Shown here piece by piece: positions 16,765-57,378 of a stretch of 64,000 nucleotides of DNA. Origin of the DNA: Sporobolomyces roseus (Eukaryota > Basidiomycota > Microbotryomycetes > Sporidiobolales > Sporidiobolaceae); assembly GCA_016617785.1 (NCBI GenBank), contig JADILM010000005.1, positions 1,178,001 to 1,242,000 on the forward strand, given 5' to 3'. The notes below the pieces were generated by a model. That model was not told where the DNA came from. It searched no databases and saw nothing but the letters and a program-made list of their open reading frames with translations. The translations under genes were made by a program, and so were the position numbers. Position 1 is the stretch's first letter. Every line of letters begins with the position of its first letter.

Positions 16765-16875
16765 TGCTTCTCGTCTCTAATACATCGCTTGACTCCAAGG
16801 AGGGAGCTGTTGATGATCTCGGATATCCTGTTGATGCCAAGAGTGAAGAGAAGGTTCCGCTAGTGGAGAGGACAT
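16765..16875 (-). pseudogene. Truncated, frameshifted 5' fragment of a MATH-BTB gene
   Basis: Reading from the ATG at 16875 on the minus strand, the sequence matches the first exon of the intact MATH-BTB gene at 54768 (plus), including the block CTAGCGGAACCTTCT and the end AAGCGATGTA before intron 1. One base is missing relative to the intact copy (CCTTCTCTTCACTC versus CCTTCTACTTCACTC), which shifts the frame and leads to an early TAG. Similarity stops a few bases into intron 1. All MATH and BTB exons are absent. This is a remnant left by the duplication and is very unlikely to be functional. Confidence 0.75.
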
Positions 16876-17229
16876 GGTCAGAGACCAAACAGTATTTGCT
16901 CCTCTCTTTCTGACTCTTTACTCGCTCAGTTCGTCCTCCTTCAATAGCCTCAAGTAGCCAAGAAGAAGCAATAGAATAGTATCGCCCGCTCTAAACACGC
17001 TCAAACAAGAACAAAGTCTTTCTCTCCTTGTTGCCTCGATCTAGTTTCCTCCCTTGTTCTCTGTCCATTTGATAGCTACGTCCTGTTGCAGTACCTGACA
17101 GTGTGAGCGACCTTCTCCTTTATCTTATGATGCAGTCGGCTGATCGATGTAGAACGGTTCTGTCACAGTCTTCTCAGGCTGCCCTTCGAATCGTTTCCCT
17201 TCTTCCCTGCCTTTCGATCTCGTCTTTAC

Positions 17230-18266
17230 ATGTCCGGCAGCCTCGCAGGCAAGAAGGAGCACAAATACGGGGAATGTATCGTATGCGGTGAGATACCTTG
17301 CGACTTGAGATGCTCTGCCTGCCAGGAAAATGGAGCAGGCTTCGTCTTCTTCTGTTCTGTCGAACATCAGAGACTCGTAAGCGTGTAATCTACGACTGTG
17401 CTAACTTCCCGCATCAAAGCTGAAAGGAGGTATTCGCAGGTTTGGCCTCTTCACAAGCGAGTTTGTGGAATTCGCTCTTCGCCTTTCCGCACTCCAGCTC
17501 TTTCACCTGCTGAGCGCGCAGAAATCAAGACTCTTCTCGATAAACCATTGCTCCTCGAGGATGGTACGACTCAGATCTGGCAACACTTGATGAGAGAGAA
17601 CAGCGTGATCCCTCCCGGACTCGCAAGTTTGGGAATCAGTGGAGATATCTTTGCAGCGGTCTGTCTCGCTTCTCTCTAGAGGGTTCCGTGCCTCCACCTA
17701 CTGACTTGATACTGTTCCTGTATAGACACAAGCCCATTTCGCAAGCTCAGACTCAAGACTCGCTTCTCACTTCGAAAGAATCAGATCAAGTGATGCAGAT
17801 CAGAGCTTTAGCTTGGCTTGCGAGAATCGGGACGAGGCAGCCCACTCCCGATGAGTATCATGCTCTCGTCGCCGAACACCCATTCGACTGGGTTTCGTCC
17901 ATTCAAGCGAGAAGGCTCACCCGAAATGGAGCCGACAATGAACTACCTTCGAGCGCTCCTCGTTCTCCCTGGATGGACGAATTCTTACACAAGTACTTGA
18001 TATTTGTCGCTCTCATCCGTCGCATCCACAAGCATCCGGAGTCTCGTTACGTTATCGGACCTCTTCTCGGAAGTACCTCAATCCGTATCTTGATGGATCT
18101 CGAAGTATTGCGCATGAAAAATTGGAAGGGGCTAAAGGAGCTTCACACTCACACGGTCGATATGGTGCTAGAATTGTGCGGGTTGTCATTGAGGGAACTT
18201 CAGGCAAAATCAAAGGGAGATATGGAGGAGAAGATTGTTGAGGCATCAGAATACGCACAAGATTAA
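17230..18266 (+). CDS. MYND-type zinc-finger protein, copy A
   Basis: The protein starts MSGSLAGKKEHKYGECIVCG. The zinc motif is ECIVCG - LRCSACQE - FFCSVEHQRL, completed after the intron at 17377 by VWPLHKRVCGIRSSPFR. This gives the C-x2-C, C-x2-C, C-x3-H and H-x3-C ligand spacing of a MYND finger with one Cys replaced by His. The rest is a helical domain containing IRALAWLARIGTRQPTPDEY and HPFDWVSSIQARR, shared only with its paralogue at 53416-54404. The second intron runs from the GTCTGT after GCAGCG to the AG before CCCATTTCG. A 5'-UTR intron (GTGAGCG... to CACAG, about 17102-17180) is conserved in the paralogue. MYND fingers bind proline-rich peptides; the function here is unknown. The frame is intact, so the copy is probably active. 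Confidence 0.7.
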
Positions 18267-19108
18267 TAAGAGTGATGCTTCGGGGTCGGAAATTCCTGGG
18301 AAACGTATATGATCTACTCTTGAAGCATAAATGTTGCTATTGAGGATTTACTGCAGTCGAGAGAGAGAGCCAAAAGAGCGATCTGTGAATCTTTCGATCT
18401 CTCTTACTTTCATCGAGTTCGATACCGCTACTTCGCTCTCCTTTCATAGGGAACGACTTGACGCCCTTCACTCAAAGAGAAGACGCAAACAACATATATT
18501 CGAAGTGGAATCGATTCGACCTGACTTTCGAATCTTTCCCTCGAATCCAGCGAATCAACCACCAATCTCAACCGATGCTCTCGACACCGTCACACAAAAA
18601 GCATACAGTTCTCGAATACAGCGCAAGTTAGCTTGCACTTCAACCTCTACCGTCCCCGGCTAATTCCGACCTGTTTACTGCTTCATCTAATTCGCCCAAT
18701 CTTCCGTCAACAACCCTACAAGCGACTCTAGAGAGCTCAAGAGCAAGACCAGATAGTCCTTATTATATACTGAAGTCAGTGGGAGATCGTTTGAGGGTGC
18801 TGGACGAGAGGAAGAGGAGAAAATCGAGAACGGTGACGAGTTGATCGAGGAATTTGGAAGTGTTGTAGTTGAGGTAGAGACGACAAGGGTGTCGAGGTAC
18901 GGGAGAGTGGATTATAGAGTAGGACAAGGTTGTAGAGCAGGTTCGTTCGTTGAGTCCTCCTGTTTCCCTTCCTCGACTCCATTTCCGCTTCCAATCGACC
19001 TCTCTCTAGCCTCTCCAGCAGCCCGACCCTCCAGCACGACCTGCCGCCGCGTGATTCAAGTCGCTCTGACGGTAGCTCCTTCGGCAGTCCACCTTCCCCT
19101 CCTTTCGC
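18267..19108. other. Spacer inside arm A, no supported gene
   Basis: This stretch lies between the MYND-A stop and the end of the HMG-like pseudogene. It is similar to 52544-53415 in inverted orientation but has many small indels, and no frame is kept in both arms. A small frame that looks open in arm B (52880-53027) is broken in arm A. It most likely holds the two 3' UTRs. Confidence 0.5.
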
Positions 19109-19522
19109 TCAGGCTCCTTTCGATTCTTCCCGCTTCTCGAGGTATCGCTGCTTCTCGTCTGGAGTCGCTTGATTTCACCTCTCAGCAATCAGCGAAGCTA
19201 TTTCATGAACGCCATCAGCTTCAATCACTTCCGACTCGAGAATACGAGGAGACTTACCGTGTGAAGGAGGAGATTTGGAAGCTTCATTCGAGGTGTGCGG
19301 TGAGGAGTGTCGGTAAATGGGTACGCGAGACTCGTCGAAGCGAGGAGTAGAGTTGCTTGAAGCGTCTTGCTGCTCCTGGAGAGCTAAGGAGGGTTGAAGC
19401 GGCGATTCGGCGAAAACAGCGAGGGAGGAGGGAGAAGCTGTTTGGTCGGGAAGAGAATTCGTTTCAGAGGAGGACGAATGGTTGAGGGCTTCCGAGTACT
19501 CTGTGGGCGATGCAGTCCTCAT
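19109..19522 (-). pseudogene. HMG-box-like gene, copy A, with a nonsense codon
   Basis: From ATG 19522 the frame matches the intact copy at 52130-52543. It carries the serine-rich N-terminal region (SETNSLPDQTASPSSLAV) and then reaches IASLIAER. At that point the TGG of the paralogue is TGA (19175-19177), removing the tryptophan expected in HMG helix 2. The codons after it still read NQATPDEKQRYLEKREESKG up to a second TGA at 19109, so this single change is what breaks the gene. Readthrough or use as a short protein cannot be excluded. The upstream noncoding exon and its intron (GTACGT donor, CTGAC branch) remain recognisable. Confidence 0.6.
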
Positions 19523-20936
19523 CTGGGCTGAAAGGCGGATATCGGTGAAGGAAGAGACCCTGTTGAACCAGAGGGAGGTCAGTTTTCTTCTTTCCCTTTC
19601 TTCCTCCAGCACTCCTCGATTCTACCTCATCGACTTTCTCACACCATCTCTCAGCTATACTCGCCTACGTACACAAGGCAAACCACGAGAAGAGCCCAGT
19701 CACTCGCCGCTCTCCTCCTCTCGCTCGCCCGACCGACCTCAACCTGTTTGCGATTGTCAACCCCTCAACACCCTTCGACGTCCCTCTACTTCAATCTCAC
19801 TAGTCAATAGTCTAAACCAACAGCCGTCACTCCAAAAGGCAGATCTTCTGTTCCAACCCAATCACTTCTCCCTGACTTCTTCTACCTTTTCAAGTCCTCC
19901 GCCTTCCGACCAAGCAGCGAAAGACAAGCTCACCCTTTCGTCATCTATTGCTTCAGTTTCAGCGCTGGAATCCGCTAGATCATCTCTTGGGCTCGACTTG
20001 CTGTTGCAGGGATGCGAAGGTGGCTTAGGATCGTTGAATGCTCTGGATATCTTGCTACATTAGTCTCGGGATCTTCCGCTGGTCTTCCTCGCTTGTTAGG
20101 CTGTGATCAGGTAGCTTTGAGGTCAAGGTGGCAGTGTAGGAGTTCCTCTCACCGAACACTTCTCGTTTTCAGATTCTTCGCTATTCTTACACCGTTCGAA
20201 CTGGCGAATTGAATCATTCTCGACTCTATGCTAGCCTCCACTTACTCAATGCCAACAAGAAACGTTACTTAACGAATCCGCTCGGAGGAGCTCTTCGACA
20301 TTTCGTCAATTGAACCCCGCTCGAATCGATCCACGATCCAAACTAACATTTCCATTCTAGCTCGCAACGTCTCTCAAGCAGCCATTCATGCCCATGTACG
20401 ATCCTCTTGAGCTTCTCACTGCGCTGTGCTTGAATCAGTGCGTGACCTCTAAAATCTTCGAAGTCTCACCACCTCAACTGCTCGCTGGATTTCGCATTGA
20501 CGAAACAAAGCCTAACGACTCTACAAGTCACAGCCAAAGTGAGGTTGACATGTTGTGCTGTTGAATTACCAGGACTGCTACGGTTGAATCACCAGGACTC
20601 CTGCGCGAACGGAGAAACGAGCAATGTGCGCTCAACGCAACCGAAGCTGTTTTCCCTTTTTCGCTTCGAATTGCCCTCTTCAGGCTCAGCTCGGATTTGA
20701 AGCCGTTTCTTCCTGCTCGTCTAGCATACGTCTGCGTTCCTCTCGCTCATTGCTGTCGAGTTTGTCGTTCAGAACCAGTCAAGATTCCTTCGTCTCTCGA
20801 TTCATGCGAGAGGCAGACTCTCGAAAAAGCTGCGAGCGAGTCAGACTGACATTCTCGTCAATCTGTAGGACGGCTGGGGAGCGACGTGACAATCTAATGA
20901 CACCTGGAACGGAGCCAGCGGAAGTTGAAAAGCATT
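19523..20936. other. Long duplicated spacer with leader exons and a conserved unassigned frame
   Basis: The 1.4 kb between the HMG-like pseudogene and the HAD stop is conserved in arm B (50707-52129). Near the HMG gene it holds a 5'-leader exon and intron for that gene on the minus strand. A frame on the plus strand, ending SLNALDILLH at TAG 20061-20063, is kept with the same stop in arm B (SLNALDVLLH). A region near 20240-20400 is strikingly similar between the arms despite having no open frame. Two diverged copies of GTTGAATYACCAGGACT lie near 20560-20603. No complete gene model could be built. Confidence 0.45.
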
Positions 20937-22218
20937 TCACAATTTCGATTTCTCTTCGAACAAGTCTAAACCGACAATTCTCTCTAGTTCCTTCACAGCT
21001 TCTTTTGACCTACCATGTACGACGCCTAGAATGTAAAGATCTGGTCAGTAGCAGAAGAATGCAAGCGCAGGTTGAGGTAAACTCACGAATCGTTCGAATC
21101 CCTAGCTTCTGAGCAGTCGACAAGTTGTGCCCGATATCGTCGAGAAAGACTGCTTCTTCTGCTTTGACTCCTAGCTTGTCAATTGCGAGCTGGAAGAATT
21201 TGAGATCAGGTTTCCTGCGACGATCATTGAACAAGCTACTCAGCTTCGAGTACTCGAAATATCGCGAGAAGCGAGGAACTCACCGTAAGCCTTCGACGCA
21301 ACTCTCGATGTACTCATCGAACATACTCTTCAGCAGAGTATCCCCCGCCCCTTTCGTATCTTTACTAGCTGCAGCCGCCGCTCTCAGCGACTTGCGTAGC
21401 TCTTCCGTCGTGATCGGACGATAGGAACCCGTCGATCGATACCGTTCTGGTACTCCAGACGACGGAGCAAAGTTGTTGGTCAGCGCAGCGATCTTGAAGC
21501 GGTCCGCGGCTGATAAACGCCTTCGAGGGTCAGCAAAAGGAAACGATGAAAAGGAAATTGGATTTCGCAAGCTTACCTCGTAATCGATTAATCGCGGTCA
21601 CAACGAGGGGATCTGGCTCCGTCGCGGGATCCATCATCAGAGACCATAGCTGTGGATACGATAGGAATCAGTCAGAAGCTGAAAGAGATATAATTGAGCA
21701 GAATCTCACCTCCTTCCCATCAATTTTTAGCTTCTCCGGCAGTTTTGGACAATCTAGCGCTTTCAAAACGAGTCAGTCGCACTCTAGACAGTATATAGAC
21801 TGGATCTCACCTATTCCAGCCCTCTTACAGTAGACTTGATACGCCTTATTCCCTCTCTCAACATTCGATAATTGTTCTCCAAACGCTTTATAGAACTCCT
21901 CTATGACTAATTCACCTCGTTCTAACCGCTGGAATGCCCCTTGATCTCCATAAGCCTATCTCAGAGCAGATCAGCGAAATGTACGAATCCCGAGCGGACG
22001 AAAGAAACTCACAGTTATGAGAGCGTTCAAGTAATGAGGAGGAAGGTTCCATAGCTTCTCTGCTCGAGAAATTGCAGCTACTGGCGATCCCACTACTACT
22101 CCTCCTCTGTTTTGAAGGGAAGGGAGAGATCGGTTAGTGAGATAGCCGAATGTGGGAGGAGGGGAGACTTGATGGGAAGAAGCGCTTACATGTCGAAGAT
22201 GACAGCTTTGATGACCAT
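20937..22218 (-). CDS. HAD-superfamily phosphatase, epoxide-hydrolase-N-terminal type
   Basis: The start ATG (22218) gives MVIKAVIFDIGGVVVGSP after the first intron is removed. This is the HAD motif I in the DxGG form typical of the ACAD10/soluble-epoxide-hydrolase N-terminal phosphatase group. Later exons carry RAEKLWNLPPHYLNALIT, FKIAALTNNFAP (motif II region) and LKSMFDEYIESCVEGLR. The motif III/IV segment is KPDLKFFQLAIDKLGV and AVFLDDIGHNLSTAQKLGI. The last exon ends in GLDLFEEKSKL with TGA at 20937-20939. The complete set of HAD motifs implies an active phosphatase of unknown substrate. The 3' part, from about 21335 downwards, lies inside inverted-repeat arm A, and its duplicate at 50312-50706 is truncated. 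Confidence 0.82.
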
Positions 22219-22414
22219 GAGAGAGTCGAGTAGAAGCGAGTACAATGTGGAAGGAGCAAGAGACGTGCGAGAACCGGAAAGTTTCGCCCAAGTTCTCAAG
22301 TTCTCGGATTCGATTCTCTCGTTTCGTTTTGCAAGTCTGTCCTCTCACCGAACGCTGGATAAGAAACTCCACATCGTATAAAGTGGATGGGACTCTGGAA
22401 AGTTCAGTTGCTGT

Positions 22415-25400
22415 TCATTCCAAAATAGCTCCTCTCGTACTAGAGATTGATCTCGCAGCACCAGGACCACTCCCACCTCTCCTCATACCCAACGCATTGC
22501 CACCTCCTCCCCCACCTGCGTTCGGTCTATTCGGATCAAAGAGCTGAGTCGATTTTGGAGGTGGACGTCGAATGTCGGGGAACGGCAAGTTGTCCTGAGA
22601 TCTACCTCCGCTTGATGGCTGCTGAGGAGGAATTGGAGGAGCTGGAGGCATTGATGGATGAGCGTAAGTCCAGTTTGAAGGAGGTAGATTGACCGGGTAG
22701 GCTCCTCCTTGAATCGGATAATTCCCGGTTGAAGATGGTTGAGAGAATGAGGGGGCAGCGGGATAGTGGATTCCACTCGGTCGATTCCAGTTGGGTGGTT
22801 GACCTGGTTGAGACGGATTCGAAGGAGGTGCTGGGGAGAAAGACTGAGGAGGTTGTGGGTAGAAAGGTGGTTGAGAATTCGTCGAGATTGGGTAGGAACA
22901 ATAAGCGGGTTGAGGCGGAGGCTGCTGATGGGACTGATATGGGTGATGCAAGGTAGGAGCAGCGTTGTGAGAGGCATAAGAAGCTGTAGGTGGCTGGGAA
23001 GTGGGAAAAGACGGGGGTGTTGCTTTCGAGGAATGTTCAGTGGTTGATGATGGAACGGGAGGGGGAGGTGTTCGAGCTCGAGGAGGTTTTGTGGCGACCC
23101 ATATAGGCTTCGCGGGGAGACTCGGATGGAGGGATGTCGATGAAGCAGGTGTCCGACTAGGGGATTCTGTCGATTCCTCCTGCTCCTCCTTTTCCGCTTC
23201 AGGCGATTCCGTTTCTCTTCCTACAATCGTAGTCTGCCTATCCCGCTTCTTCACTTCTCCCGATGACCCAGACCCAGCATCACTTCCTCCCGTCAACGAA
23301 ACTTTCCTCTCTCCCGCTAATCTCGCCGACGACACCGAACTTGCCAATGATCCACTCTGTCTCCTGACTTGCGATCCAGTACTTCCAGTCTTCCCCGTCC
23401 GACTCCCTGTCCCTGCCGCACTCGAGCTCGCCGCTGTTCTCGAAGTCCCTCCTGAATTGTGACTGCTTTGTTGACTGTTTGAACTGAAAGAGCTGACACT
23501 TCTCGCAGTCGAAGGAGGACCGACAAACATGGAAGAGGACGGGGAGGAGAAGGTAGGTGGTCCAGCAGTGACTGTTCCTCCAGGTGTAACGACTGCTCCA
23601 GAGTCGGCGAATCGCATGAGGTATCCTGAATTAGCACTCGTGCTCCGTTCGCTAGTCGTGGTCGAGGAGGAAGAGGCGTGATGGTGATGGAGAGGTTGTT
23701 GCATCGAGCTTCCCGAGCTGTTCGAGAGGGAAGGAGAAGGGAGAGAGGGAGGAATTGCTCGACCCCAGGCATCGACGGGTTGATAGTGTTGCTGAGAAGG
23801 AGGGAAAGGGGGAGGAGGAATCGGACCCGAGAAGGAAGACGTCGAAGAAGAGGCGTAGGAAGGTGAAGAAGCGGCATAAGGGGAGTGAGAAGGAGGAGCA
23901 GTCACTTGAATCGGAGGGTGAGGAGAATAATTCGAGTGATTCGGATACTGTTGAAACTGTTGTTGCTGCCATGAAGGATCCTGAGCGTAGTTGGCGTACT
24001 CGGGAGTCCAACCTCCATGCATGCTCGGATCGAAACTTGGTGCAGAAGGTCGAAGTGAGGGCATCAACTGAGATCCTCCTCCGTAAATTCCTCCATGATG
24101 TCCACTCCACATGCTCGATCCCGACTCGCTCACTATTGATGGACTCGGCCTCCCTCCCGCGACTGATAAAGCTGCGCTACTTCTCGAGAATGTCGAACCT
24201 GCTGAACTGGGTCGAGTGATTCCCGCACCAACCGATGCCAACCTCGAGCTAACATCTTCACTCGCTACGCTGCTCGAGCTAGGAGCTATCTGACTAGCAG
24301 CCCTCTCCTGTTCCGGCTGACTAAAGATTCGTTCCCTAGCTTCCTTGTAAGCTGCTTCTCGCTCCTCCAGAGTCAACTCTTTTCGATTCTTGCCCTTTGC
24401 ACTCGGTGGTGCGCTTGATGAGGTCGCAGGATCGTCATCGGTCCCGATCGATGAGGAGGCGGAAGATGCAGTGCGAGATGCGCTCGATCTGGGCAGAATC
24501 TTGAGAATCTGAGGAGTTGTTGGCGGTTGAGAAGAAGCGGTCGCGGGATCTACGAGGTTCGGAAGTGACGAGGTTGAGGCAGAGGGTGGCGCAGAAGTGA
24601 TTGGCGAGGAAGCTATGGAAGGAGTCGAGGAGGGAGAAGGAATTGCGATCGTTGATGGGGTAGGAGCGGGAACTTCGGGAGCTGGTACATAAGTCGCGAG
24701 CTTGGCGGGAGGACTACATTGGAGCGAGACATCAGTACATCGCGTATCCTGGAATCAACAAAAGTATCCTTACAAGCGAGTGTTTTCGCCTTTGACGAGA
24801 ACGACAACGCCTTGAGGTTGACCAGTAGCAGGATTAATCGCTCCTGCGTTCCAGATCGTCGGTGGTGCCGCTTCAACCTCTCGAGTGATCCCGAATGTAT
24901 CTGCTAAGCGATGTACGAGGAGTCGCTGATAGGAATTGAGGGCAGGTTGGAAATAGGGAGGAGCGAGAGGAAGTCGGGTCATTCTGCGAGAAAGCGACTA
25001 GATTAGCGAGACTCCAAGACACCAGAGAGGGGCAGGAGACATACGAAGGGTTCCCCAAGAACCTTTCCATCTCGACCTCTGCTCGCAACAGGAGGAAGCG
25101 ATCTCGATGATGATTCAACGCTGCTCGCAAAACTGGGTCGAGCGAATCCTCCACCTCTTCCCCTGGGACTGCTTCACTCTGCGATATATCTGAGCGCTCG
25201 CTTCGCTCTGATTCATCCGCTTCTCCCGCCAGTCCATCCGTTGAATCCGCTAGTTCTCCTCGTCCCGAATCTACTGCATCTCCGAAAGTCACACTCCCTC
25301 GCGGTTTCTCGTATCCCCTAGTCGCTTTTCTCTGTAACAGCTCGACCCTAGGTCCAGGTGAATCCTGATCGTGTGAAGAACTTTGTAGGTTTAGAAGATT

Positions 25401-25658
25401 TGGAGGAGATGAAAGTGGTCGAGATGAATCGGTTCTCGGGGTAGTCAGGAGGTCTGGGGAGTGTAGAGCAGGTGATTGCGCTTTCGAGCTGTCCGTAGCG
25501 TCCTCCGTATCGAGTTGAGATGTTTGAGGAGCCGACGTCAGGAAAGGAGGAAGAGTCGACGAGGAGGCCTCGGAGGAGAGAGAGGACGCTGCGAGAGCTG
25601 CAGAGATCGATTCATGATCTTGTAGGTGGGCTTCTGATAGCTCAGTCGGCGTCGTCAT
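22415..25658 (-). CDS. R3H and SUZ domain RNA-binding protein
   Basis: The long N-terminal region (25658 to about 25150) is serine/acid-rich. The R3H domain follows in SLDPVLRAALNHHRDRFLLL and continues across an intron to RMTRLPLAPPYFQPALNSYQ and RLLVHRLADTFGI, where the R-x3-H pair (RLLVH) is visible. The SUZ motif is LTLEEREAAYKEARERIFSQ near 24360, just after a linker exon. The remaining 600 residues are low-complexity Pro/Ser/Gln-rich, like the tails of R3HDM1/2, Drosophila encore and fungal relatives that bind single-stranded RNA. The protein ends STRGAILE. The stop lies 197 bp from the HAD start, and both genes are on the minus strand. Confidence 0.82.
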
Positions 25659-26106
25659 GGCGAGAGCGAGTGTAGACGATGAAAGTCGGTTGGAGAAAAA
25701 GGGTGTTCAAGGTAGAAGAGGAATGAATAGATCGCTATGGTACTGGTAGAGCTATCTTGTCATCGAATGCACTCTGTCGAGGTCTAAGTTTCTGATGGAA
25801 GTGAATTGGTGAGAAGCAAAAAGTGAAACTTCGTCGAATTCCCTCTCAAGTCCAACGCAACTTTTTCATCGGAATTTACTTAGTTACACAGTGCGAGACA
25901 AGAGACCTTGTCTAGGAAACGGAAGCGAGCGAATCAAGCTGTAAAGGGTTTGCGTTTCATCGACGAGAAAGACAAAAGATACAATTTTCGATTCTACGAA
26001 CATTCAGGTTTCAGCAGGTCTGAGAAATGCTACAACAGAGGTTCGACAAGCTAGATACCGTAATCTCAGTCCAACGAGGAGGAATAGGCGCTGAGGCAAA
26101 GCGGTT
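25659..26106. other. Intergenic region upstream of the R3H-SUZ gene
   Basis: The 448 bp hold the promoter and leader of the R3H-SUZ gene and the 3' UTR of the cytochrome b561 gene. No protein-like frame or repeat is seen. Confidence 0.4.
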
Positions 26107-27266
26107 CTAAGACGATCTCCTGCGAATCCCGAGTTTACTCGTCCTGTCAATTCGTTCACAACGCTAATCAGCTTCGGTCTTGCGACTGGAGGTGAAGTAA
26201 GTAGGACATACTCAATACGAGTCATAGCTCCGATAGCGGCCATGGCGTAGCCGACAGCGACGAGGTTCCTTTCGTGTTGCGAAGAATGCCCGATGAACCA
26301 ATCACTCCAAAGGGCGAGGATCGGTGTCGCAATGAGGAGAGAGAGGCCAAGGTATCCCGAGAGTCTGCTCGTAGTAGAGACGTAAGCGGGAGTTCTAGCT
26401 TGTTGAAACGGTGGAGAAGACAAACCGATGGTATTTGTAGAGACTCTTCGCTTTTCCCTCTCCTCCGAGAAGCGAAGGTGCGAACACCGCTACAGCTCCG
26501 AAAGTGGCTTGGAGAATGATGAAGCAGAGTGTCTGGATATGCGATGGTGGTTGAGCGAAATGAACGAAGAGGAGTGGAAAGATTCGCAACTTACGACGAG
26601 ACCGATCTTTGCATGCCATGTTGTGAAGTGTGGTGCTGTGAATTGATTCAAAGAGTCAGTAAGATGCTGTTATTGTTAGATCGATACTCAGGACAGCGCT
26701 GTTCACTCTCAAGAGACCAAAAAATCGAAACTCACCACCGTGCGAAGCCTTGTTGTAGATGATAAAGGTTGCTCCCGTAATAATAAGCAGCGTCGCGAGA
26801 CCCTGGAAGGCTGTATGTAGCTGCCGTCCTGTTTTCTTGACAACAGCGTTGCTAGGAGGTGGTTGCAAGAGAATTATCCCTGTAAAATTGCGAAGATTCT
26901 GATTAGTCGAAGAACTCGCTTCAACGTGGATATAGGACCTCACCCTCGATGAAAAGCAACACAGCTACAGATTGGAACGCTGGGTGGTAAGTAAACAGAC
27001 CTGTTCGATCCCGCTATCCTCAGCTCCTGAATATCTCGAGATCGGAGTTTGCGGGGGCACTGACCAGAGGGATTCTCCTTGACAACTTTCCATAATACTA
27101 CATGCGATAACAGTATTCCAACCTGTGCGAAGACTGCTCCAAAGCCGAGGAACGAGTTGTCATGTAGGTAAGAGAGGAAGGAAGGTCTTTCTTGAGGCGT
27201 TGATCCTGCCGAGTCTGTTCGGATCAGTGGTGTAGTCTCTTGATCTGCGTCGTGAGGTGAAGGCAT
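26107..27266 (-). CDS. Cytochrome b561 domain membrane protein
   Basis: Exons joined from 27266 encode a multi-pass protein beginning with a hydrophilic tail (MPSPHDADQETTPLIRTDSA). The haem-ligand histidines of b561 proteins appear in LFTYHPAFQSVAVLLFIEG, RQLHTAFQGLATLLIITG, APHFTTWHAKIGLV and SLYKYHRLSGYLGLSLL, giving the expected set of four. About six hydrophobic segments are predicted. The family transfers electrons across membranes, usually from ascorbate, and this protein is closest in look to CYB561D2-type transmembrane reductases. A last intron (GTATGT...GACAG) leads to a short basic tail and TAG at 26107-26109. The first introns contain small unassigned frames that are not coding. 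Confidence 0.82.
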
Positions 27267-34596: not shown

Positions 34597-34760
34597 AGCG
34601 AGGGTGCCTATTAGATCCTAGTACTCTTGTGACTGACCAAAAGCTCTTGCTAGATCGGAATTGACGATTGGAAGCAAGCGAGTGAAGTGAAGAGGAGAAA
34701 GAAGCGAACAGAGCGACTTGGTCTTCTACATTCACCTACCATCCTCATAGTAATCCTTGG
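34597..34760. promoter_or_regulatory. Short divergent promoter region (MATH-BTB / VPS11)
   Basis: These 164 bp separate the two start codons on opposite strands and must contain both promoters. No specific element was recognised. Confidence 0.4.
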
Positions 34761-47833: not shown

Positions 47834-48257
47834 CTTGAGCTACTCTGTGTAGCACTACAAAGAGTGATTGAAGTTCGTAGTGAATGGCGAGAGGGAGAGA
47901 GAGAGAAGTAGAAAAGGTTGCATCTTGACCTCATCCAACACAATTTCTGACCTCGCTCTGAACAGTCATACGTGGGAGTAGAACTATCAATAACACTACA
48001 CGAGGTAAGCTAGCTTGATCCCTTCTTGTATCGGATCGTCATTGATCTATTCGAATGTTACATCTATCAACTCTCGTCCCCATCTCCCACCACCTCTGGT
48101 CGACTAATCTATACTCTCTTACATCTACCAATCTTATACTCGACCCCTGACGACCTCTCACAACTCGCTCTGATGTGTTCTCGACATTCCAGAATCACCC
48201 TCAGTCAACCTCCAATCCCATTCGTACCTCGCTCTTGAAGCGTAAAGAACAGTAAAG
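47834..48257. promoter_or_regulatory. Divergent promoter region (PPIL4 type / DRG1)
   Basis: The 424 bp lie between the start codons of two essential-type genes transcribed away from each other. No gene is seen within it. Confidence 0.4.
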
Positions 48258-50151
48258 ATGGGTATCCATGAGAAGATTCAGGATATCGAGTTGGAGATGC
48301 AGAGGACTCAAAAGTGAGTTTGAAAAACCTCTCATTCAATTCTCGTTTGATTTGCGAATATTGATCTTCTTCCTTGCTGGCAGAAACAAAGCTACTGGTG
48401 AGCGGCTCCTGGATTATCAGTCATAGATCGTTAGCTGATATACATGGTTGATCGTTCGCAGAATACCATCTCGGTCTTTTAAAAGCCAAAGTACCTTCCC
48501 CCCCTCCTCCTTCCCCTGCTGCCCCAACTGACTCCCTCTCTCCTTTAGCTCGCACGTTACCGTCAAGAACTCCTCGAAGGTTCAATCACGAAATCAGTCA
48601 AAGGAGAGGGGTTCGACGTCGCGAAAGCAGGATACGGTCGAGCAGTGTTGATTGGGTTTCCATCGGTTGGAAAGAGTACGCTGTTGAGTAAGGTTACGAA
48701 TACGGAGAGTGCGGCGGCTGCGTATGCGTTCACTACGCTTGTCGCTGTACCGGGAGGTAAGTTCGAGATTGAGGCTCAGCTAGAGAAAAGTTGACGAAAG
48801 CTGAGAATGATTTTGTGGACCTACAGTTCTCGATCTCGATGGTGCGAAAGTCCAACGTGAGTTCCGATACTCTCTTCAGCTCTATACATCTTGCCCGAGG
48901 GCTGACACGAATATTTCGTACCACAGTGCTCGATTTACCCGGAATTATCGAAGGTGCCTCGAGTGGTAAAGGACGAGGACGACAAGTTGTCGCAGTAGCC
49001 AAAACAGCAGATCTAGTAGTCGTACGCTTCCTCTCCCTCTCCCTCTTCTTACGAGACGCTGACCTCGCTTCACCACTTCTTCAGATGATGCTCGACGTAA
49101 CAAAGTACTCCTCATCTCCCTTCCTCTCCTTGACTCCCGCTGATCCTCTGTCGCGACTGCAGAGGCGACGAACAGCGTTCCCAACTAGAGCACGAATTAG
49201 AAGAAATCGGAATCCGCCTGAACCGAACGAAACCTGATATCGTTTTCAAACCCAAGACTGCTGGAGGGATTACTATCAATAATACGGTACCCTTGACGAG
49301 AATCGATGAGAGGACGATCAGGGGTATCTTACAGAGTTACAAGGTGAGTCTTGATTGTTTTGGATTTGAGAAGAGGGAGAAGGGAGGCTGACTTGAGTGA
49401 ATGGGAGATGATAGATGCATAATGCAGACGTCATGATTCGGGAGGATGTACGTTTGATTCCCCGGACTATCTGCTGTCGTCTATGAGCTGATAGATTCGC
49501 CGTGATCGACCGTAGATCAACACGGATGATTTCGTCGATGTGATTATCGGTAATCGAAAATACGTTCCCTGTCTGTACGTCTCTCTCCCTCTCCTCAATC
49601 TCGTCTTTCAGATCTCACCTCGCTCTCACTCAATAGCTACGTATACAACAAAATCGATTCCATCTCTCTCGAAGAAGTTGACCGATTAGCTCGTCAACCT
49701 CACACGACCGTCATCTCGTGTGAACTCGATTTGAACCTCGAAGTGTTGAAGAAGAGGATTTGGGAGAAGATGGGATTCAACCGGATTTACACGAAGAAGA
49801 GGGGGGAGAGACCGGATTTAGGGGATCCATTGGTGATCAAGACGGACGCTACTATTGAAGCTGTTGTACGTACACCTCCTGCTTCTCAAGTCATTCAAGG
49901 AAACTGACTTGAAGCCATCTTGTGCGCACAGTGTAATTCGATTCACAAGTCACTGGCGGAAAAGTTTAAATACGCTGTAAGATTCCGAAGTTCGCTACAT
50001 CGCTTGTCTCACACTTGCTGATGTCGTATTCTTGGTCTTCTAACAGGTCATTTGGGGCAAATCATCAAAGTTTAGTCCTCAACCTCAAAAAGTTGGATTA
50101 ACGCACAGATGCGCTCAAGATGATGTAGTTTCAATAGTTACGAAAGTGTAG
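48258..50151 (+). CDS. RBG1: DRG1/Rbg1 developmentally regulated GTP-binding protein
   Basis: The start [20 protein letters not shown] is the usual DRG N-terminus. After several introns the G domain shows G1 [10 protein letters not shown]2-region AAAYAFTT, G3 [20 protein letters not shown] and G4-type NKID in [19 protein letters not shown]-terminal TGS domain includes [19 protein letters not shown] and [20 protein letters not shown], ending [18 protein letters not shown] at TAG 50149-50151. DRG1 GTPases bind translating ribosomes together with Dfrp1/Tma46. All motifs are intact. The gene ends about 160 bp before inverted-repeat arm B. Confidence 0.93.
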
Positions 50152-50311
50152 TCTGTGAAAAGTATATCATTTTTCTTGGACTAGTGCGGGAGGGCGATGG
50201 AGAAACTGAGCACCGGGTGAGAGAGCGAAACTTGAGAGTCAGATCTCGAACGGAATTGGTCATTCCAAGTCCGAGCAGACCGATCGCTGAGGGTGTCAGA
50301 AATACTCTTCT

Positions 50312-50706
50312 AAAGAGCATGTTCGATGAGTACATCGAGAGCTGCGTCGAAGGCCTGCGGTAGGTTCCTCGCTTCTCGCGATATTTCGAGTTCTCGAAGC
50401 TGAGTAGCTTGTTCAATAATCGTCGCAGGAAACCTGATCCCAAATTCTTCCAGCTCGCAATTGACAAGCTAGGAGTCAAAGCAGAAGAAGCAGTCTTTCT
50501 CGACGATATCGGACACAACTTGTCGACGGCTCAGAAGCTCGGAGTTCGAACGATTCGTGAGTTTACCTCAACCTGCGCTTGCATTCTTCTACTACTGACC
50601 GATGCTATATCTTCTAGGCGTCGTACATGGTAAATCAGTCGAGGCAGTGAAGGAGCTCGAAAAAGCAGTCGGATTAGACTTGTTAGACGAGAAATCGAAA
50701 CTGTGA
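50312..50706 (+). pseudogene. Truncated 3' fragment of the HAD phosphatase gene
   Basis: The fragment begins inside the exon that in the intact gene reads LKSMFDEYIESCVEGLR. It carries the next exons KPDPKFFQLAIDKLGV, AVFLDDIGHNLSTAQKLGV and VVHGKSVEAVKELEKAVGLD, up to the stop at 50704-50706. Splice sites and frames are preserved, but motif I with the catalytic aspartate is absent and no alternative start for a complete HAD domain is seen. It is the duplicate of the 3' half of the gene at 20937-22218 and cannot encode an active phosphatase. Confidence 0.75.
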
Positions 50707-52129
50707 AATGCTTCGCAACTGTCAGCTATATCGAACGAAATTTGCCGTGTTGTCCCTTCGCTCTCCTGCCGTCGTCGAGATTGAGGAGTGCGACAGTCTG
50801 ACTAGCTCAGAGCTTTTTCGAGTGCGATGCCTCTCACATTAATTGAGAGACGACCGAATCTCGCATGGTTCCGAGAAACGGAGTGAACGGCGAGGAGCGA
50901 GTGGATCAAGATTGAGTCGGACAGCACAAGTAGTGAGAATCGTCTTCAAGCTCTAGCTGAGCCAGAAAAGGGCAATTCGAAGCGAAGGAAGAACAGCTTC
51001 GGTTGCGTCGAGCCAAACTGCTCACTTCTCCGTTTGCGAAGGAGTCCTGCTGATTCAACAGTAGGAGTCCTGGTAATTCAACAGCACAACATGTCAGTCT
51101 CACTCTAGCTGTGATTCGCAGAATCGGTCAGGGTTAATCTCGTCGATGCGAATTCAAGCGAGCACTGGCAATTGAAATGTCGAGAATTCCGCGATTTTGG
51201 AGGTAACGCTCTGATTCCAGCACAGCGCATCCAGGAGCTCGAGCGAAGAATCAATGGGCATGGATTGCAGTGAGGAAGACGTTGCGAGCTAGAATGGAAA
51301 TGTTAGTTTTGATCGTGGATCGATTCGAGCGGGGTTCAATTGACGAATTGTCGAAGGGCTCCTCCGAACGGATTCGTTAAGTAACGTTTCTTGTTGGCAT
51401 TGAGCAAGTGGAGGCTAGCATAGAATTGAAAACGATTCGATTCGCCAACTCGAGAGGGGAGGAGAAGAGCGAAGAACCTGAAAACGAGAAGTGTTCGGTG
51501 AGAGCAACTCCTGTACGACCACCTCCCTTACTGACCTCGAAGCTATCTGAGTATAGCGTGTGACTGGAGGGATACCAGTGAAAGATCCCAAGCTAGTGTA
51601 GCAAGACATCAAGAGCATTCAACGAACCTAAGCCAGCTTCGCATCCCTGCAACAGCAAGTCGAGCCCGACAGATGATCTAGCGGATTCCGACGCTGAGAC
51701 TGAAGCAAGAGATGGCGATAGGATGAGCTTGTCTTTCGCTGCATGGTCGGAAGGCGGAGCACTTGAAAAGATCGAAGAGGTCAGGGAGCAGCGATTGGGT
51801 TGTAGGAGAAGAACCGGCTTTGAGACAACGATCTATTGCTTGAGCCTATCGACTAGCTACATCGAAGGAGAGAGAGGTCGAAGGGTGTTGAGGGGTTGAC
51901 GATTGCAAACCGATCTAGGTCGATCGGTCGAGCGAGAGGAGGAGAGCGGCGAGTGACTGGGCTGATTCGGTGCGTGCCTTGTGTGAGTAGACAACTATAG
52001 CTAAGAGGTTCAGTGAGGAAGTTGACGAGGTAGAGTAGAGGAGAGGAGTGCTGGAGGAAGAAAGGGGAAAAAGAAAACTGACCCTTCAACAGGGTGTCTT
52101 CCTTCACCGATATCCGCCTTTCAAAGCAG
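50707..52129. other. Duplicated spacer and leader of the HMG-like gene (arm B)
   Basis: No complete gene is supported here. On the plus strand near 51601-51900 a frame reads NEPKPASHPCNSKSSPTDDL and MSLSFAAWSEGGALEKIEEV, kept in arm A with a few substitutions. On the minus strand a frame ends SLNALDVLLH at 51593. The two frames overlap, and which strand is coding is unclear. A leader intron for the HMG-like gene (51983-52092: GTGAGT donor, CTGAC branch, CAACAG) precedes the ATG at 52130; the frame upstream of this intron has a stop, so that exon is a noncoding leader. Two copies of a GTCCTGRTWATTCAAC-like unit lie near 51045-51085. Confidence 0.45.
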
Positions 52130-52543
52130 ATGAGGACTGCATCGCCAGCAGAGCACTCGGAATCCCTGAGCAATCCGTCCTCCTCCGAAACGAATTCTCT
52201 TCCCGACCAAACAGCTTCTCCCTCCTCCCTCGCTGTTTCCGCCGAATCGCCGCTCCAAACCTCCTCAGCTCTCCAGGAGCATCAGAATACCTCAAACAGC
52301 TCCATTCCTCGCTTCGACGAGTCTCGCGTACCCATTTACCGACACTCCTCACCGCACACCTCGAATGAAGCTTCCAAATCTCCTCCTTCACACGGTAAGT
52401 CTCCTCGTATTCTCGAGTCGGAAGTGATTGAAGCTGATGGCGTTCATGAAATAGCTTCGCTGATTGCTGAGAGGTGGAATCAAGCGACCCCTGACGAGAA
52501 ACAGCGATACCTCGAGAAGCGGGAAGAATCGAAAGAACTCTGA
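52130..52543 (+). CDS. HMG-box-like protein, copy B (intact)
   Basis: The first ATG after the leader intron gives MRTASPAEHSESLSNPSSSE, a serine-rich region, and then RFDESRVPIYRHSSPHTSNE. The C-terminal part ASLIAERWNQATPDEKQRYL, followed by EKREESKEL, resembles helices 2-3 of an HMG box (IAxRWxxxxxxEKxxY). The N-terminal helix 1 signature (PxxAFxxF) is not seen, so the domain would be incomplete and the assignment is tentative. A 60-nt intron (52395-52454, GTAAGT...GAAATAG, with CTGATGG as a possible branch site) may be removed; because its length is divisible by 3, both forms remain open (137 or 117 residues). The function is unknown. The arm A paralogue is broken by TGG-to-TGA. Confidence 0.5.
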   Translation: MRTASPAEHSESLSNPSSSETNSLPDQTASPSSLAVSAESPLQTSSALQEHQNTSNSSIPRFDESRVPIYRHSSPHTSNEASKSPPSHGKSPRILESEVIEADGVHEIASLIAERWNQATPDEKQRYLEKREESKEL

Positions 52544-53415
52544 GCGAAGAAGGGGAAGGTGGATTGGCGAAGTCGGTACGGCCAGAGCGAGTCGAACCAG
52601 TCGGAGGTAGTTTGTGCTGAGTGTCGAGGGAGATGCTGGACAGGTTGATTGGAGAAGCGAAAACAGGATCTCGAAGAGGGAAACAAGGAGGACTCAACGA
52701 CGGAACCTGCTCTACGACCTTGTCCTATTCGCCACTCCATTCAACTGCATCTCGACACCCTTGTCATCTCTTCCTCGCGTTCACTGCTTTCAGATTCCTC
52801 GATCAACTCGTCACCCATTTATAGACTTTCTCCTCTTCCTACCCTCCATCGCCTCCATACAATCCTCTACCGCCTTCAACATGCCTCGAACATCATCTAT
52901 TTCTGTCTTTGGGCTCCCCAGGGTTGCTCGTAGGGTTGTTGGGGAGAGATTGGGCGAATTAGATGAAGCAGTAAATCGGGTCGAAACTAGCTGTCGAGGG
53001 TGGAGGGTGAAGTGCAAGCTAGCTTGAACAATAGGTCAGATCTATCGGTTTATTATGCGAGGCTCTTGAAGCTGTGACTTGAGAGTGGATGTCGGACCGT
53101 GACCCGGAGAGAAGGCAAAACTCGAGCGCTCCGAAGTTGCCAGAGACGCAAGCACTCGATGCATGCCTCTTCACTGCTCAGCGAAAGGAGCGAACAATGT
53201 GCTGAACCTCTCGCAAAGGGAAGCGAAACTTATGAATGAGGGATCGAGCAGACTTCTTTCGCTCGCTTTCGAATCAATGGATCTAGAATCCGTCTCTCAG
53301 TCTCTGATTTGCTTGCGCAACTAGCAGGCATTCGGAGAGTGAGACATATCTGACGACACTACATCTTGTATGGACTCCCAAAGGACTAGTTGTGCAGACA
53401 CAAAAACAGACCTGC
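52544..53415. other. Spacer inside arm B, no supported gene
   Basis: This stretch lies between the HMG-like and MYND stop codons, which face each other. It mirrors 18267-19108 with many substitutions and indels, and no frame is conserved in both arms. Confidence 0.45.
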
Positions 53416-54404
53416 TCATTCCTTCCCTTCCCTTTCGTCCTTTCCGAGTACTTCATCTGATAAACCGCACATTTTTAGAAGAGTCGAAATGAGGTATCCC
53501 GTAAGCTCGAATGCTTCCTCTGTGCCGGTTGAAGCGAGTCTTGCGAAGTTCAATACGAAACGTACAGCGAAATCTTCGAGGAGGCCGACGAGTTCCGAAC
53601 GAGCTTCGGGCTTCTTGTGAATGCGAGCGATGATAGCGATGAAGATCAAGTATTTGTGAAAGACCTCGTCGACCCAGTCGCCGTTTCTGGAGTCGTCAGG
53701 CGGGTTCAGCGAGAGGCGAGAACTCCGCTTCGCCATGACAGTCGCAATCCAATCGAAGGGATGGTTGGCGATTAAAGCATGAAGCTCCCCGGGAGTGGGG
53801 TTCTTCGTCCCAATTCTTGCAGTCCAGGCTAGAGATCTAATGGCGACCAGTTGATTGGATTGATTCGTCGCGAGAAGTGGATTTTTGGCGTTCTCTTGCA
53901 GCAGGTACAAACTAGTCTAGATTCAACGACGAATACTTCAGTGAGCTTAGTCGTACCAACCAGTAGTGCGAAAGGTCGCACATTACCGCTGAATAAGCCT
54001 CTTCGGTAATTCCTAATGTTGCGAAAGCAGCGGGAACTCTGTTGCTCTCCTTCATCAGGTTGGCCCAAGTCTCAGTCCCTCCCTCATTGATACCGAAAGG
54101 CTTGCGATATAACGTCTGGAATTCTTCGACCTCCTCGGTTGTGAGTGCAGGACTGCGGAAAGGCGAAGAGCGAATGCCGCAAACGCGTTTGTGGAGGAAC
54201 CAGACCTAGACCACACGCTTTATCAGCTCGCCATCTTTGTCCCAAATAGATAGAAATCCCGCTCACAAGCCTTTGATGTTCAGTCGAGCAGAAGTAAATG
54301 TAATCAATGCCGTTCTCGAGACAAGCGGAGCATCTCGTGTGACAAGGTGACTTGCCGCAAACGATACATTGTCCTGATGCGCTTGTGGAAGTACTGGAAG
54401 ACAT
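53416..54404 (-). CDS. MYND-type zinc-finger protein, copy B
   Basis: The first exon reads MSSSTSTSASGQCIVCGKSP, then CHTRCSACLENGIDYIYFCS and TEHQRL. After an intron comes VWFLHKRVCGIRSSPFRSPA, completing the zinc finger with the same ligand spacing as copy A. The body contains IRSLAWTARIGTKNPTPGEL and HPFDWIATVMAKR, then VDEVFHKYLIFIAIIARIHK, and ends KDEREGKE. It is clearly paralogous to 17230-18266, with enough amino-acid differences to show the two have diverged under constraint. The second intron ends AGAG before AACGCC. A 5'-UTR intron lies upstream. The gene is divergent from the MATH-BTB gene whose start is at 54768. Confidence 0.7.
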
Positions 54405-54767
54405 CGAGAATCGAGAGTAGAAGCGAAAGCTACTAAGGGAGGGAGAAGAACGATTCTAGGGGGGGAAGACTGTGACGAGAAGTTCGATTTCGATCAGTCG
54501 AATACGCCTCGCAGATCAGAGGGAAGGTCACTCACACTGTTAGATACTGCAACAGGGCGTAGCTATCAAATGGACAGAGAGCAAGGGAGGAAACTAGATC
54601 GAGTAAATAAGGGGAGAAAGACTGCTTGATCGTGGGTGAGCGTGTCTAGAGCTAGCGATACTATTCCCAATGCTTCTTCTTGACTACTTGAGGCTCCTGA
54701 AGGAGGTCGAAACAGAGCGAGTAAAGTGTCAGAAAGAGAGGAGCAGAGTAGTGCTTGATCTCTGACC
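54405..54767. promoter_or_regulatory. Divergent promoter region (MYND-B / MATH-BTB 1)
   Basis: The 363 bp hold the MYND 5' UTR with its intron and the promoter of the MATH-BTB gene. A minus-strand frame here (54566-54904) is open but is antisense to the MATH-BTB first exon; its counterpart in arm A is broken by indels, so it is not a gene. Confidence 0.5.
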
Positions 54768-57378
54768 ATGACTTCTCCTCTAGCGGAACCTTCTACTTCA
54801 CTCATGGCATCAACAGGATATCTGAGATCATCTGCAGCTCCCTCGTTGGATTCAAGCGATGTACTAGAGACGAGAAGCGTTAGTTTCCCCTCTCTTCCGC
54901 TCAAGACCCTCTCTCTTGCTCACCGTCTCCAACGCGTTAGGTACAACTTGAATGGAAAGTCAGTAATCTCAAGCAGCTATTCGATTCTACAAAAGGGGAG
55001 ATCAAATCGAAATGCGTCAAGGTGAGTTCTCCTTCTCCTCTCTTTCCCTCTCATGTCGATGTGGGGCTCGAGTTGACCTTGAGAACGCGCGTTGTAGTCT
55101 CCCTTGTTCGACAATTCTCGATGGCAGATATTCTTGTATCCGAACAGTGGACACGAACAATACGTCTCGCTTTACTTGTCAGCGGAACCGACAGAATTCG
55201 AAAAGGAGAGGAGTTTGAACGAAGGCGCTCTCTATGATCCGCCGAAAGTTGGAAGGGATGGGAAAGAGAAGGAGAAGGAGAAAGACAAGGCACCTTGGAG
55301 GAGAGACGGGCATTACAAGTTCACTTTCGAGGTGAGTATTCATTTTCGATTCTTGAGTTTCGCAGGGAAAGCTGACACAGTAACGCGTCATAGGCCAGAG
55401 ATCTCAACCGAAGATTGACGTTCAAACAGATGGAGGCAGACAATCACTCGTTCTCGTCGAAGGAGAGGAATTGGGGTAAGCAGCAATCTCTCACTCCTCG
55501 ATTCTGTTGCCCATCTGACTGGTACCGCTACCTCAACAGGCTATCAATCGTTCTGGAGACGCTCTGAGGCATACTACAACAATCCCGCGACCCGCTCAGC
55601 CGACGGTTTCCTCATCATCTGTACCATCACTTCCTCTCCGACTCTCCCAGCAACTTCAGCTCCTCCTCACCTGTCAATCCCGAAAGATCTAGTCACCTCC
55701 TTTGCATCACTCTTCGACGACCCAGAGTACTGCGATATTGTCTTCCGTATTCGACCTGAAGATGAGGAAGGAAGGAGAATTGGGAGGGAGAAAAGACTTT
55801 ATGCAGCGAAGAAGATTTTGGCGGGTCGCAGTGAATACTTTCAATCGAGTGAGTTCAGGTAGAAGACATCCTCTATTGGCCTGCCAGTGCTTATGCCTTA
55901 TCCTTTCGAGCTCGCAGTGTTCAATTCGGGGTTCAATGAATCGACAGCAAGAATCTCTAGCTCGCCAACCCGAACGTCTAGTCAATTCGACGAACTCAAC
56001 GACCACGACAGCGGGCTCGAGTTTTCTTCTGATGAAGATGGAGAAGACGGAGGAATCGATGAAGACGATGATTCAGCAGTTGATGAAACCGAATCAGAAT
56101 CAGAATCGGACGATCAAATAGGAATCGTTCACCCTTCATCAAGCACACCTCGACCATCTTCCGCTCTTCCTGTCACTACATCGGCCGATCTCTCTATGTC
56201 CTCGACGATCGCACCGAGCCCAGTCGTCGTCGCTCCTTCGACTCCTCGTTCTCGAACTTCCTCAGCCGCAATCTCGAACGATGGAGATCAACTTGAGCCC
56301 TTCGCCGACAGCACAGCTCCCTCGGTCACTGGCGACCTCTCGGAACTGTCAGCTGGAGAAACAAGCGAAGTCGAATCGTCTCGGCAAACGAGCACTCCTC
56401 CTCCGCTCTCCCCATCAAGGAGGAACGAACCAAGATTCGTCGATGCGAGAAGCGCTCCTCCTTCTCCAGCGAGAATTCGAGGGTTCTCAATGAGCCAGAT
56501 CGAGCCGTCGGCGAAAGTGAGCAATAAGCGGGAGCAGAAGAAGAAGGGGAATGATAGACCAAGATCCGAAGTTATCGTCGCTGATGCATCGTAAGTTCGG
56601 GAAGTCTGGTTAATCACCGTGTGTGTGCTGATTTTCTTGAACTCTTCGGGCTACAGATACTCTACATTCCGAGCTTTACTTTACTATCTCTACACGAATC
56701 AAATCAGGTACTTCTCCTTCCTCTCTCTCAAGATTTAGATCGTAAGCCTGATGCCTCTTCTCTCTCTAGCTTCACTCCCCTTGCCTCGACTTTCTACGCA
56801 GCGAAAGATCGAGCTTTTGCTGCCTCCATCCCCTTTACCTATACATCTCGCAAAGCTTTCATCCTCGCCCACTCACCACACCACTCGAAAGTAGGTGACG
56901 GTGTAGGACCCGCTTCGGCGAAAGCACTGTATCGGTTGGCCGACAAGATGGGGTTGATCGAGTTGAAAGAATTGGCTTTCCAACATATCGTTTCGAGTTT
57001 GACTCCTCAGAATGTGAGCTCCAATCTCTCCTTCTCTCATATTCGAGTCTCAAGCTGACTTATTGAGGGAGCAATAGGTCGTGTACGAGGCATTCGGTTC
57101 ATTCTCGATGAGGTTCGACGAGATTAAACGAGTCGAAGTTGCGTTTCTACTCCAACACTGGGTAAGCTCTTCTCCTCTCTCTTTCACCATCTCTCTACTG
57201 ATAGAACCGCGCTTCCACTATGCAGAACGATGTTCGTTCTTCACCATCAATGTCGAAAGTCTTCACCTACCTCCGCACGAATCGTTTCCCAGGATTCGAA
57301 GAAGTCTGGTTATCACTCCTTGAGAACCTCGAATATCGACCACCGACTACCAACGAGGTTGTTGAAGAAGGAGAGTGA
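54768..57378 (+). CDS. MATH-BTB domain protein (paralogue 1, intact copy)
   Basis: Exon 1 (from 54768) reads MTSPLAEPSTSLMASTGYLR, and exon 2 joins to DVQLEWKVSNLKQLFDS. The MATH domain continues SPLFDNSRWQIFLYPNSGHE and YVSLYLSAEPTEFEK, then DGHYKFTFE and ARDLNRRLTFKQMEADNHSF. The BTB domain contains LFDDPEYCDIVFRIRPEDEE, KRLYAAKKILAGRSEYFQSM and, after an acidic Ser-rich insert of about 200 residues, STFRALLYYLYTNQISF. A BACK-like part has AKALYRLADKMGLIELKELA. The C-terminus is YRPPTTNEVVEEGE. MATH-BTB proteins are expected cullin-3 ligase adaptors. The first exon lies inside arm B; the rest is outside, which shows where the repeat ends. Confidence 0.8.

What the first reader, a model, noticed from the sequence alone, without database searches (positions are those of the whole stretch)
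16765..54873. Inverted duplications flanking a 29-kb block: the footprint of a staggered-break inversion
Two arms of about 4.56 kb (16765-21335 and 50312-54873) are inverted copies of each other. The gene truncations are reciprocal: arm A keeps the full HAD gene (which extends into the inner block) and only a 5' scrap of MATH-BTB; arm B keeps the full MATH-BTB (which extends into the outside) and only the 3' part of HAD. A staggered double-strand break at one inversion end, followed by fill-in, produces exactly this arrangement. It predicts the ancestral order ACH1 - DRG1 ... R3H-SUZ - HAD - HMG - MYND - MATH-BTB - CTF4, with ACH1 and DRG1 facing each other tail to tail.
Basis: partly seen in the sequence, partly recalled or inferred. 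Interest (0 to 1): 0.9.

Follow-up and report, generated by a model that had tools for sequence, protein, structure and literature searches.

The report
Yeast gene block that flips repeatedly
In a red yeast related to Sporobolomyces roseus, a 29-kb stretch of genes lies between two mirror-image copies of a 4.6-kb sequence, and gene order in related species suggests that the stretch has been turned round more than once rather than once.

Summary
Arms 16762-21341 and 50302-54883 are inverted copies (82% identical over the inner 2.7 kb, 74.5% over the outer 0.77 kb), found nowhere else in the genome search. The reciprocal truncations are real: HAD is whole at A and a 3' scrap at B; MATH-BTB is whole at B and a frameshifted exon-1 scrap at A. 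The host is a Sporobolomyces sister to S. roseus. Locus tags of relatives suggest gene order: S. phaffii has the predicted ancestral order (MATH 6550, HAD 6551, ACH1 6563). One inversion does not explain the rest: S. ruberrimus (MATH 1513, HAD 1524) and S. carnicolor (ACH1 2364, HAD 2366) fit the window's order, but group with S. phaffii and S. pararoseus; a single clade of inverted species is rejected (p-AU 0.019). The arms are mosaic: MYND copies with dS 1.36 beside a 171-bp identical run and HAD introns 87-94% identical. I read this as an old inverted duplication whose arms still recombine, homogenising parts and sometimes flipping the block, as in the Saccharomyces chromosome XIV flip/flop region. 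Birth by a staggered break is plausible, not proven.

The parts
16762..21341 (.). arm A of the inverted duplication
50302..54883 (.). arm B of the inverted duplication
21342..50301 (.). 29-kb block between the arms; nine genes by my models plus the 5' part of HAD
14302..16448 (+). ACH1 (acetyl-CoA hydrolase) outside arm A; the end is read from the frame that matches relatives
   Evidence: PF02550 143 bits, PF13336 118 bits; end
16765..16875 (-). scrap of MATH-BTB exon 1 in arm A, frameshifted by a 1-nt deletion relative to B
17230..18266 (+). MYND gene, copy A; second intron has no strong donor, so its exact structure is unsure
   Evidence: PF01753 30.4 bits
19118..19561 (-). HMG-like ORF, copy A, with an in-frame stop
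19176..19346 (.). 171-bp run identical to 52306-52476
20937..22218 (-). complete HAD hydrolase gene; its 3' part lies in arm A
   Evidence: PF00702 48.2 bits
22415..25658 (-). R3H-SUZ gene
   Evidence: first 416 residues scanned: SUZ 43.8 bits; R3H 21.4, below its cut-off of 26.8
26004..27266 (-). cytochrome b561 family gene
   Evidence: PF03188 34 bits
27602..32131 (-). FG-rich protein, nucleoporin-like by eye; not scanned
34761..38851 (+). VPS11
   Evidence: PF23341 230 bits
40405..41132 (+). small hydrophobic protein; not scanned
41535..44017 (-). charged, coiled-coil-like protein by eye; not scanned
44424..45737 (+). Cut8 family gene
   Evidence: PF08559 66.6 bits
46181..47678 (-). PPIL4-like cyclophilin-RRM gene
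   Evidence: PF00160 104 bits, PF00076 63.5 bits
48258..50151 (+). DRG1, ends 150 bp before arm B
   Evidence: PF16897 119 bits, PF01926, TGS
50302..50706 (+). 3' scrap of HAD (about 91 residues) in arm B, splice donor of intron 5 changed
52082..52543 (+). HMG-like ORF, copy B
53416..54404 (-). MYND gene, copy B
   Evidence: PF01753 25.2 bits
54768..57378 (+). complete MATH-BTB gene; exon 1 and promoter lie in arm B
   Evidence: BTB 45.1 bits; MATH_2 12.7 bits in my model, below its cut-off, but listed for relatives
57739..62515 (+). CTF4/WDHD1 outside arm B
   Evidence: PF12341 311 bits

Best explanation
The arms are an old inverted duplication of a HAD-MYND-MATH segment, made at one end of an inversion or insertion (birth inferred; a staggered break with fill-in fits). 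Since then the arms have recombined with each other. Exchange without crossover made parts of them alike again (the mosaic is shown; gene conversion is the inferred cause). Crossovers between the arms inverted the 29-kb block (inferred from gene order in relatives), so that Sporobolomyces species carry it in opposite orientations. From the map, a flip with its crossover between the HAD part and the MATH part leaves both genes whole: HAD keeps its own half-arm, MATH-BTB keeps its own, and the scraps stay together at the other junction. The MYND copies have diverged too far to be made alike and persist as two different genes.
For: Two inverted arms only, with reciprocal truncations. Uninverted order in S. 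phaffii and, for HAD-MATH, in S. pararoseus; the window's order in S. ruberrimus (10 genes between MATH and HAD; the window has 9 block genes plus MYND) and S. carnicolor (one gene between ACH1 and HAD). Concatenated tree: (window, roseus) 100/99 beside the six other species at 94/96; a clade of window, roseus, ruberrimus and carnicolor is rejected, p-AU 0.019; fewest orientation changes on the best tree 3. Mosaic arms: longest identical run 171 bp against at most 76 in 5000 shuffles; MYND last exon dS 1.36 while HAD introns 5 and 6 differ by 6% and 13%. MYND-A groups with metagenome protein P0228 (100/98), and MYND-A with MYND-B as sisters is rejected, p-AU 0.003.
Against: Orders are read from locus-tag numbers, not DNA; only two markers per species except S. 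phaffii. No arm was seen in any other species, and the MYND+HMG search found no protein in S. ruberrimus, S. carnicolor, S. phaffii or S. pararoseus (2 proteins of 6056 candidates). Window+roseus+ruberrimus as one clade is not rejected (p-AU 0.071), nor are phaffii+pararoseus (0.279) or ruberrimus+carnicolor (0.415), so two events could suffice. The five tests came after a first tree had been seen. The tree has much missing data (roseus and carnicolor 20% of kept columns filled). In Rhodotorula, HAD and MATH are about 3 to 54 tags apart, so adjacency is not universal. High identity in some tracts could be constraint on unknown elements. With arms 18% different overall, flips today would be rare.
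Confidence: 0.55

Rival explanations
1. One reading: one inversion by a staggered break, arms as its passive footprint.
For: Reciprocal truncations and the predicted order in S. phaffii.
Against: Orientation does not follow the tree (p-AU 0.019); the arms were made alike in parts after MYND diverged.
Confidence: 0.15
2. Independent inversions reused the same fragile ends in several lineages; the window's arms come from its own event and do not mediate flips.
For: No arms were found in other species; HAD parts of the arms are as close to each other as to S. roseus HAD (8 against 9 differences in about 91 residues, my count).
Against: Inverted arms are a ready substrate for flips; the MYND copies are older than one speciation; the mosaic shows exchange between the arms.
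Confidence: 0.2
3. On birth only: the arm was first copied in reverse into the ACH1-DRG1 gap, and a later crossover between the two copies inverted the block. Compatible with the best explanation.
For: Gives the same map as a staggered break (reasoning).
Against: Needs two steps where a staggered break needs one.
Confidence: 0.3
4. Assembly error.
For: No long reads were available to check.
Against: The arms differ at 18% of sites in the inner part and far more in MYND, and have different flanks; the contig is 1.88 Mb.
Confidence: 0.02

Closest known systems
Saccharomyces chromosome XIV flip/flop region (Salzberg et al. 2022, PMC9731477; abstract, passages and section 10 seen)
   Same: A block of similar size (24 kb, 15 genes) between inverted repeats of similar size (4.2 kb); the repeats carry a fast-evolving gene whose family duplicates often; both orientations across a genus; proposed cause is gene conversion between the repeats with occasional crossover.
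   Different: There the repeats are nearly identical and orientation is polymorphic within species; here the arms are 82% identical in the inner part, MYND escapes homogenisation, and polymorphism was not tested.
Recurrent inversion on the mammalian X chromosome (Caceres et al. 2007; not read, seen only as cited in PMC9731477)
   Same: Repeated inversion between homogenised inverted repeats.
   Different: Animal locus; details not seen.
Staggered-break inversions of Drosophila (Puerma et al. 2016, PMC4965816; abstract and passages seen)
   Same: Duplicated pieces of a few hundred bp to 8 kb at the two ends of an inversion, with whole or partial genes.
   Different: Here relatives show mixed orientation and the arms have exchanged sequence.

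Membership tests
Recurrent inversion between homogenised inverted repeats (flip/flop) | Inverted repeats at both ends of the block | tested here: met
Recurrent inversion between homogenised inverted repeats (flip/flop) | Orientation changes more than once on the tree of relatives | tested here: inconclusive
   Favoured: p-AU 0.019 against one clade, 3 changes on the best tree; but orders rest on locus tags, and not every grouping is rejected
Recurrent inversion between homogenised inverted repeats (flip/flop) | Repeats kept alike by exchange | tested here: inconclusive
   Met in tracts (171-bp run, HAD introns), not met in MYND (dS 1.36)
Recurrent inversion between homogenised inverted repeats (flip/flop) | Repeats present at the same ends in relatives | not testable with these tools
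   No DNA of relatives was available
Recurrent inversion between homogenised inverted repeats (flip/flop) | Both orientations within one species | not testable with these tools
   One strain only
Single staggered-break inversion | Inverted duplicates at the two ends with reciprocal truncations | tested here: met
Single staggered-break inversion | Uninverted order in a relative | tested here: met
   S. phaffii tags
Single staggered-break inversion | Single copy of the duplicated piece in that relative | not testable with these tools
   No DNA of relatives was available
Single staggered-break inversion | One event explains the inverted species | tested here: not met
   p-AU 0.019, with the caveats given

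The most novel reading that the evidence does not exclude
A flip/flop locus evolved independently in basidiomycete yeasts and, as in Saccharomyces, its repeats carry members of a fast-evolving, expanding gene family (MYND here, Centroid there). The shared pattern would suggest that such genes in the repeats, not the block between them, keep the flipping alive, and that orientation is still polymorphic within species.
Probability: 0.3. Interest if true: 0.75.

Novelty: new member of a known kind. Interest (0 to 1): 0.55.

Why it matters
It would be a flip/flop region in a yeast far from Saccharomyces, of similar dimensions (29 kb between 4.6-kb arms, against 24 kb between 4.2-kb repeats) and again with a fast-evolving gene in the repeats. 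What keeps such repeats alike is stated to be unknown in PMC9731477. A second, less homogenised case shows which parts are kept alike and which escape. It also warns that arms at the ends of an inversion need not be the footprint of one event.

Tried and rejected
No Rfam family reached its gathering score and no tRNA was found in the window, so repeats of RNA genes are not behind the arms. Retrocopy origin rejected: introns are in both arms. Dispersed repeat or mobile element rejected for the arms as a whole: two copies in the genome search. Selection on the protein alone as the cause of MYND divergence rejected: silent sites are near saturation. The first gene-finder script gave nonsense and the second was too strict; one search replaced them. 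A dN/dS attempt failed on a wrong frame and was redone with my own Nei-Gojobori code for the MYND last exon only; dS was not obtained for HAD. One translation (HMG, B copy) was in the wrong frame and is not used. The search meant to count arm copies in relatives returned 2 proteins of 6056 candidates and cannot show absence. My 314-residue MYND-A model, used, keeps some letters that may be intron; one search lists spliced variants of 274-299 residues. Outgroup distances HAD-MATH in Rhodotorula (about 3, 7, 12, 26 and 54 tags) do not all favour adjacency and were used only with that caveat.
Full report
What is there. Self-comparison confirms two inverted arms at about 16762-21341 and 50302-54883. 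blastn gives 81.9% over the inner 2.7 kb and 74.5% over the outer 0.77 kb. The stretch between, which holds the MYND gene, aligns at 41-68% per 90-base window. Outside the arms identity falls at once. A whole-genome DNA search with arm B finds only the two copies. The genome has 22.4 Mb in 15 contigs, and the window is C5:1178001-1242000.

Genes. I trained a simple gene finder on 264 kb around the window and checked 15 proteins or pieces with Pfam (7, 8). Left to right: ACH1; arm A; HAD, running out of arm A into the block; R3H-SUZ, cytochrome b561, an FG-rich protein, VPS11, a small hydrophobic protein, a charged protein, Cut8, PPIL4 and DRG1; arm B; MATH-BTB, running out of arm B; CTF4/WDHD1. 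The FG-rich, small and charged proteins were named by eye. HAD is whole at A; B keeps its last ~91 residues, with a changed splice donor. MATH-BTB is whole at B; A keeps exon 1, with a 1-nt deletion. MYND is in both arms. The HMG label is weak.

Host. The nearest protein relatives are Sporobolomyces species. HAD is 94% identical to that of S. roseus JCM5353; the pair has support 98/93 in the HAD tree and 100/99 in the concatenated tree.

Gene order in relatives. I had no DNA of relatives, but locus tags of several species appear to be numbered along the contig, so tag numbers suggest order (my inference). Pairs whose listed contig lengths agree: S. phaffii MATH 6550, HAD 6551, ACH1 6563; S. 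pararoseus JCM5350 HAD 4180, MATH C-terminal fragment 4183; S. ruberrimus MATH 1513, HAD 1524; S. carnicolor ACH1 2364, HAD 2366. Outgroups: R. kratochvilovae HAD 964 and MATH 967 (prefixes JCM10450v2 and JCM10449v2), R. araucariae 160 and 167, R. pacifica 5777 and 5789, R. glutinis 1465 and 1491, R. mucilaginosa 2410 and 2356. S. ruberrimus has 10 genes between MATH and HAD; the window has 9 block genes plus MYND. S. carnicolor has one gene between ACH1 and HAD; the window has MYND-A and the doubtful HMG-like ORF. ACH1 tags of other species may be hidden in a cluster of 8 members that is shown under one name.

Tree. HAD, MATH-BTB, ACH1 and PPIL4 concatenated (1402 of 2276 columns kept, 12 rows, much missing data) put (window, roseus) beside the six other species at 94/96; the order among those six is unresolved. 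Five clade tests, run after a first HAD tree had been seen, gave p-AU: window+roseus+ruberrimus+carnicolor 0.019; window+roseus+carnicolor 0.0072; window+roseus+ruberrimus 0.071; phaffii+pararoseus 0.279; ruberrimus+carnicolor 0.415. The fewest orientation changes on the best tree are 3, with R. kratochvilovae scored as uninverted; two would suffice under groupings that are not rejected. The orientation of S. roseus is unknown.

The arms have recombined. Over 2700 aligned inner columns (82.3% identical) the longest identical run is 171 bp, against at most 76 in 5000 shuffles of the columns; the variance among 60-column windows was reached by 0 of 5000. JC distances are 0 in the core, 0.05 in HAD exon 7, 0.06 and 0.14 in HAD introns 5 and 6, 0.24 in HAD exon 8, 0.10 and 0.16 in MATH exon 1 and its promoter, 0.34 and 0.46 in two other non-coding stretches, and 0.52-0.69 in MYND. 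The MYND last exon has dS 1.36 and dN 0.585 over 143 codons. So silent sites there are nearly saturated, while introns of a HAD scrap, which should be free to drift, differ by only 6-13%. A tree of 8 MYND proteins joins MYND-A to a metagenome protein, P0228, at 100/98 and rejects MYND-A and MYND-B as sisters (p-AU 0.003); long outgroup branches are a caveat. The duplication is thus probably older than at least one speciation, and other tracts have been made alike since. Constraint on some unknown element could explain single tracts, but hardly a scrap's introns.

Mechanism. A crossover between inverted arms inverts the block; exchange without crossover gives the mosaic. From the map, HAD stays joined to the inner half of arm A and MATH-BTB to the outer half of arm B whichever way the block lies, so flips need not break either gene (reasoning). 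This is the mechanism proposed for the Saccharomyces chromosome XIV region (PMC9731477: abstract, passages and section 10 seen). Staggered breaks are documented for Drosophila inversions (PMC4965816: abstract and passages seen) and fit the birth of the arms here; a duplicative insertion followed by a crossover gives the same map.

Not shown: arms in other species, polymorphism within a species, breakpoints of relatives at DNA level. Searches of the held paper library for Sporobolomyces with inversion and genome, recurrent inversions with fungal terms and inversion toggling with basidiomycete terms listed no title or abstract start that describes this locus. Of 13, 177 and 11 papers I saw listings of 13, 12 and 10; most subscription papers are not held.

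Noticed in passing
own genome G000, many contigs, mostly C2 and C5: The arm MYND protein has 90 exon-level matches at E <= 0.1 in this genome, 4 of them the arms' own (100 candidates scored, a lower bound), and PF01753 has 65 at E <= 0.01. A published table gives 11 zf-MYND for S. roseus and 26 for R. glutinis (PMC4469406, passages; methods differ).
   Followed up: partly
G000:C2:1855587-1870554: Five MYND matches spaced exactly 3718 bp apart with equal scores, as in a young tandem array.
   Followed up: no
window 21087-21214: HAD of arm A reads KPDL where the arm B scrap and all eight relatives that I fetched read KPDP; that this is a conserved HAD motif is recalled.
   Followed up: no
window 42951-43182: A short diverged direct repeat, 76 columns at 80%, inside the charged protein's gene.
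   Followed up: no
S. phaffii tags 6551-6563: Eleven tags lie between HAD and ACH1 where the window's block has nine genes by my models; two extra genes at the DRG1-ACH1 end would fit an arm copy there, but annotation differences could explain it.
   Followed up: no
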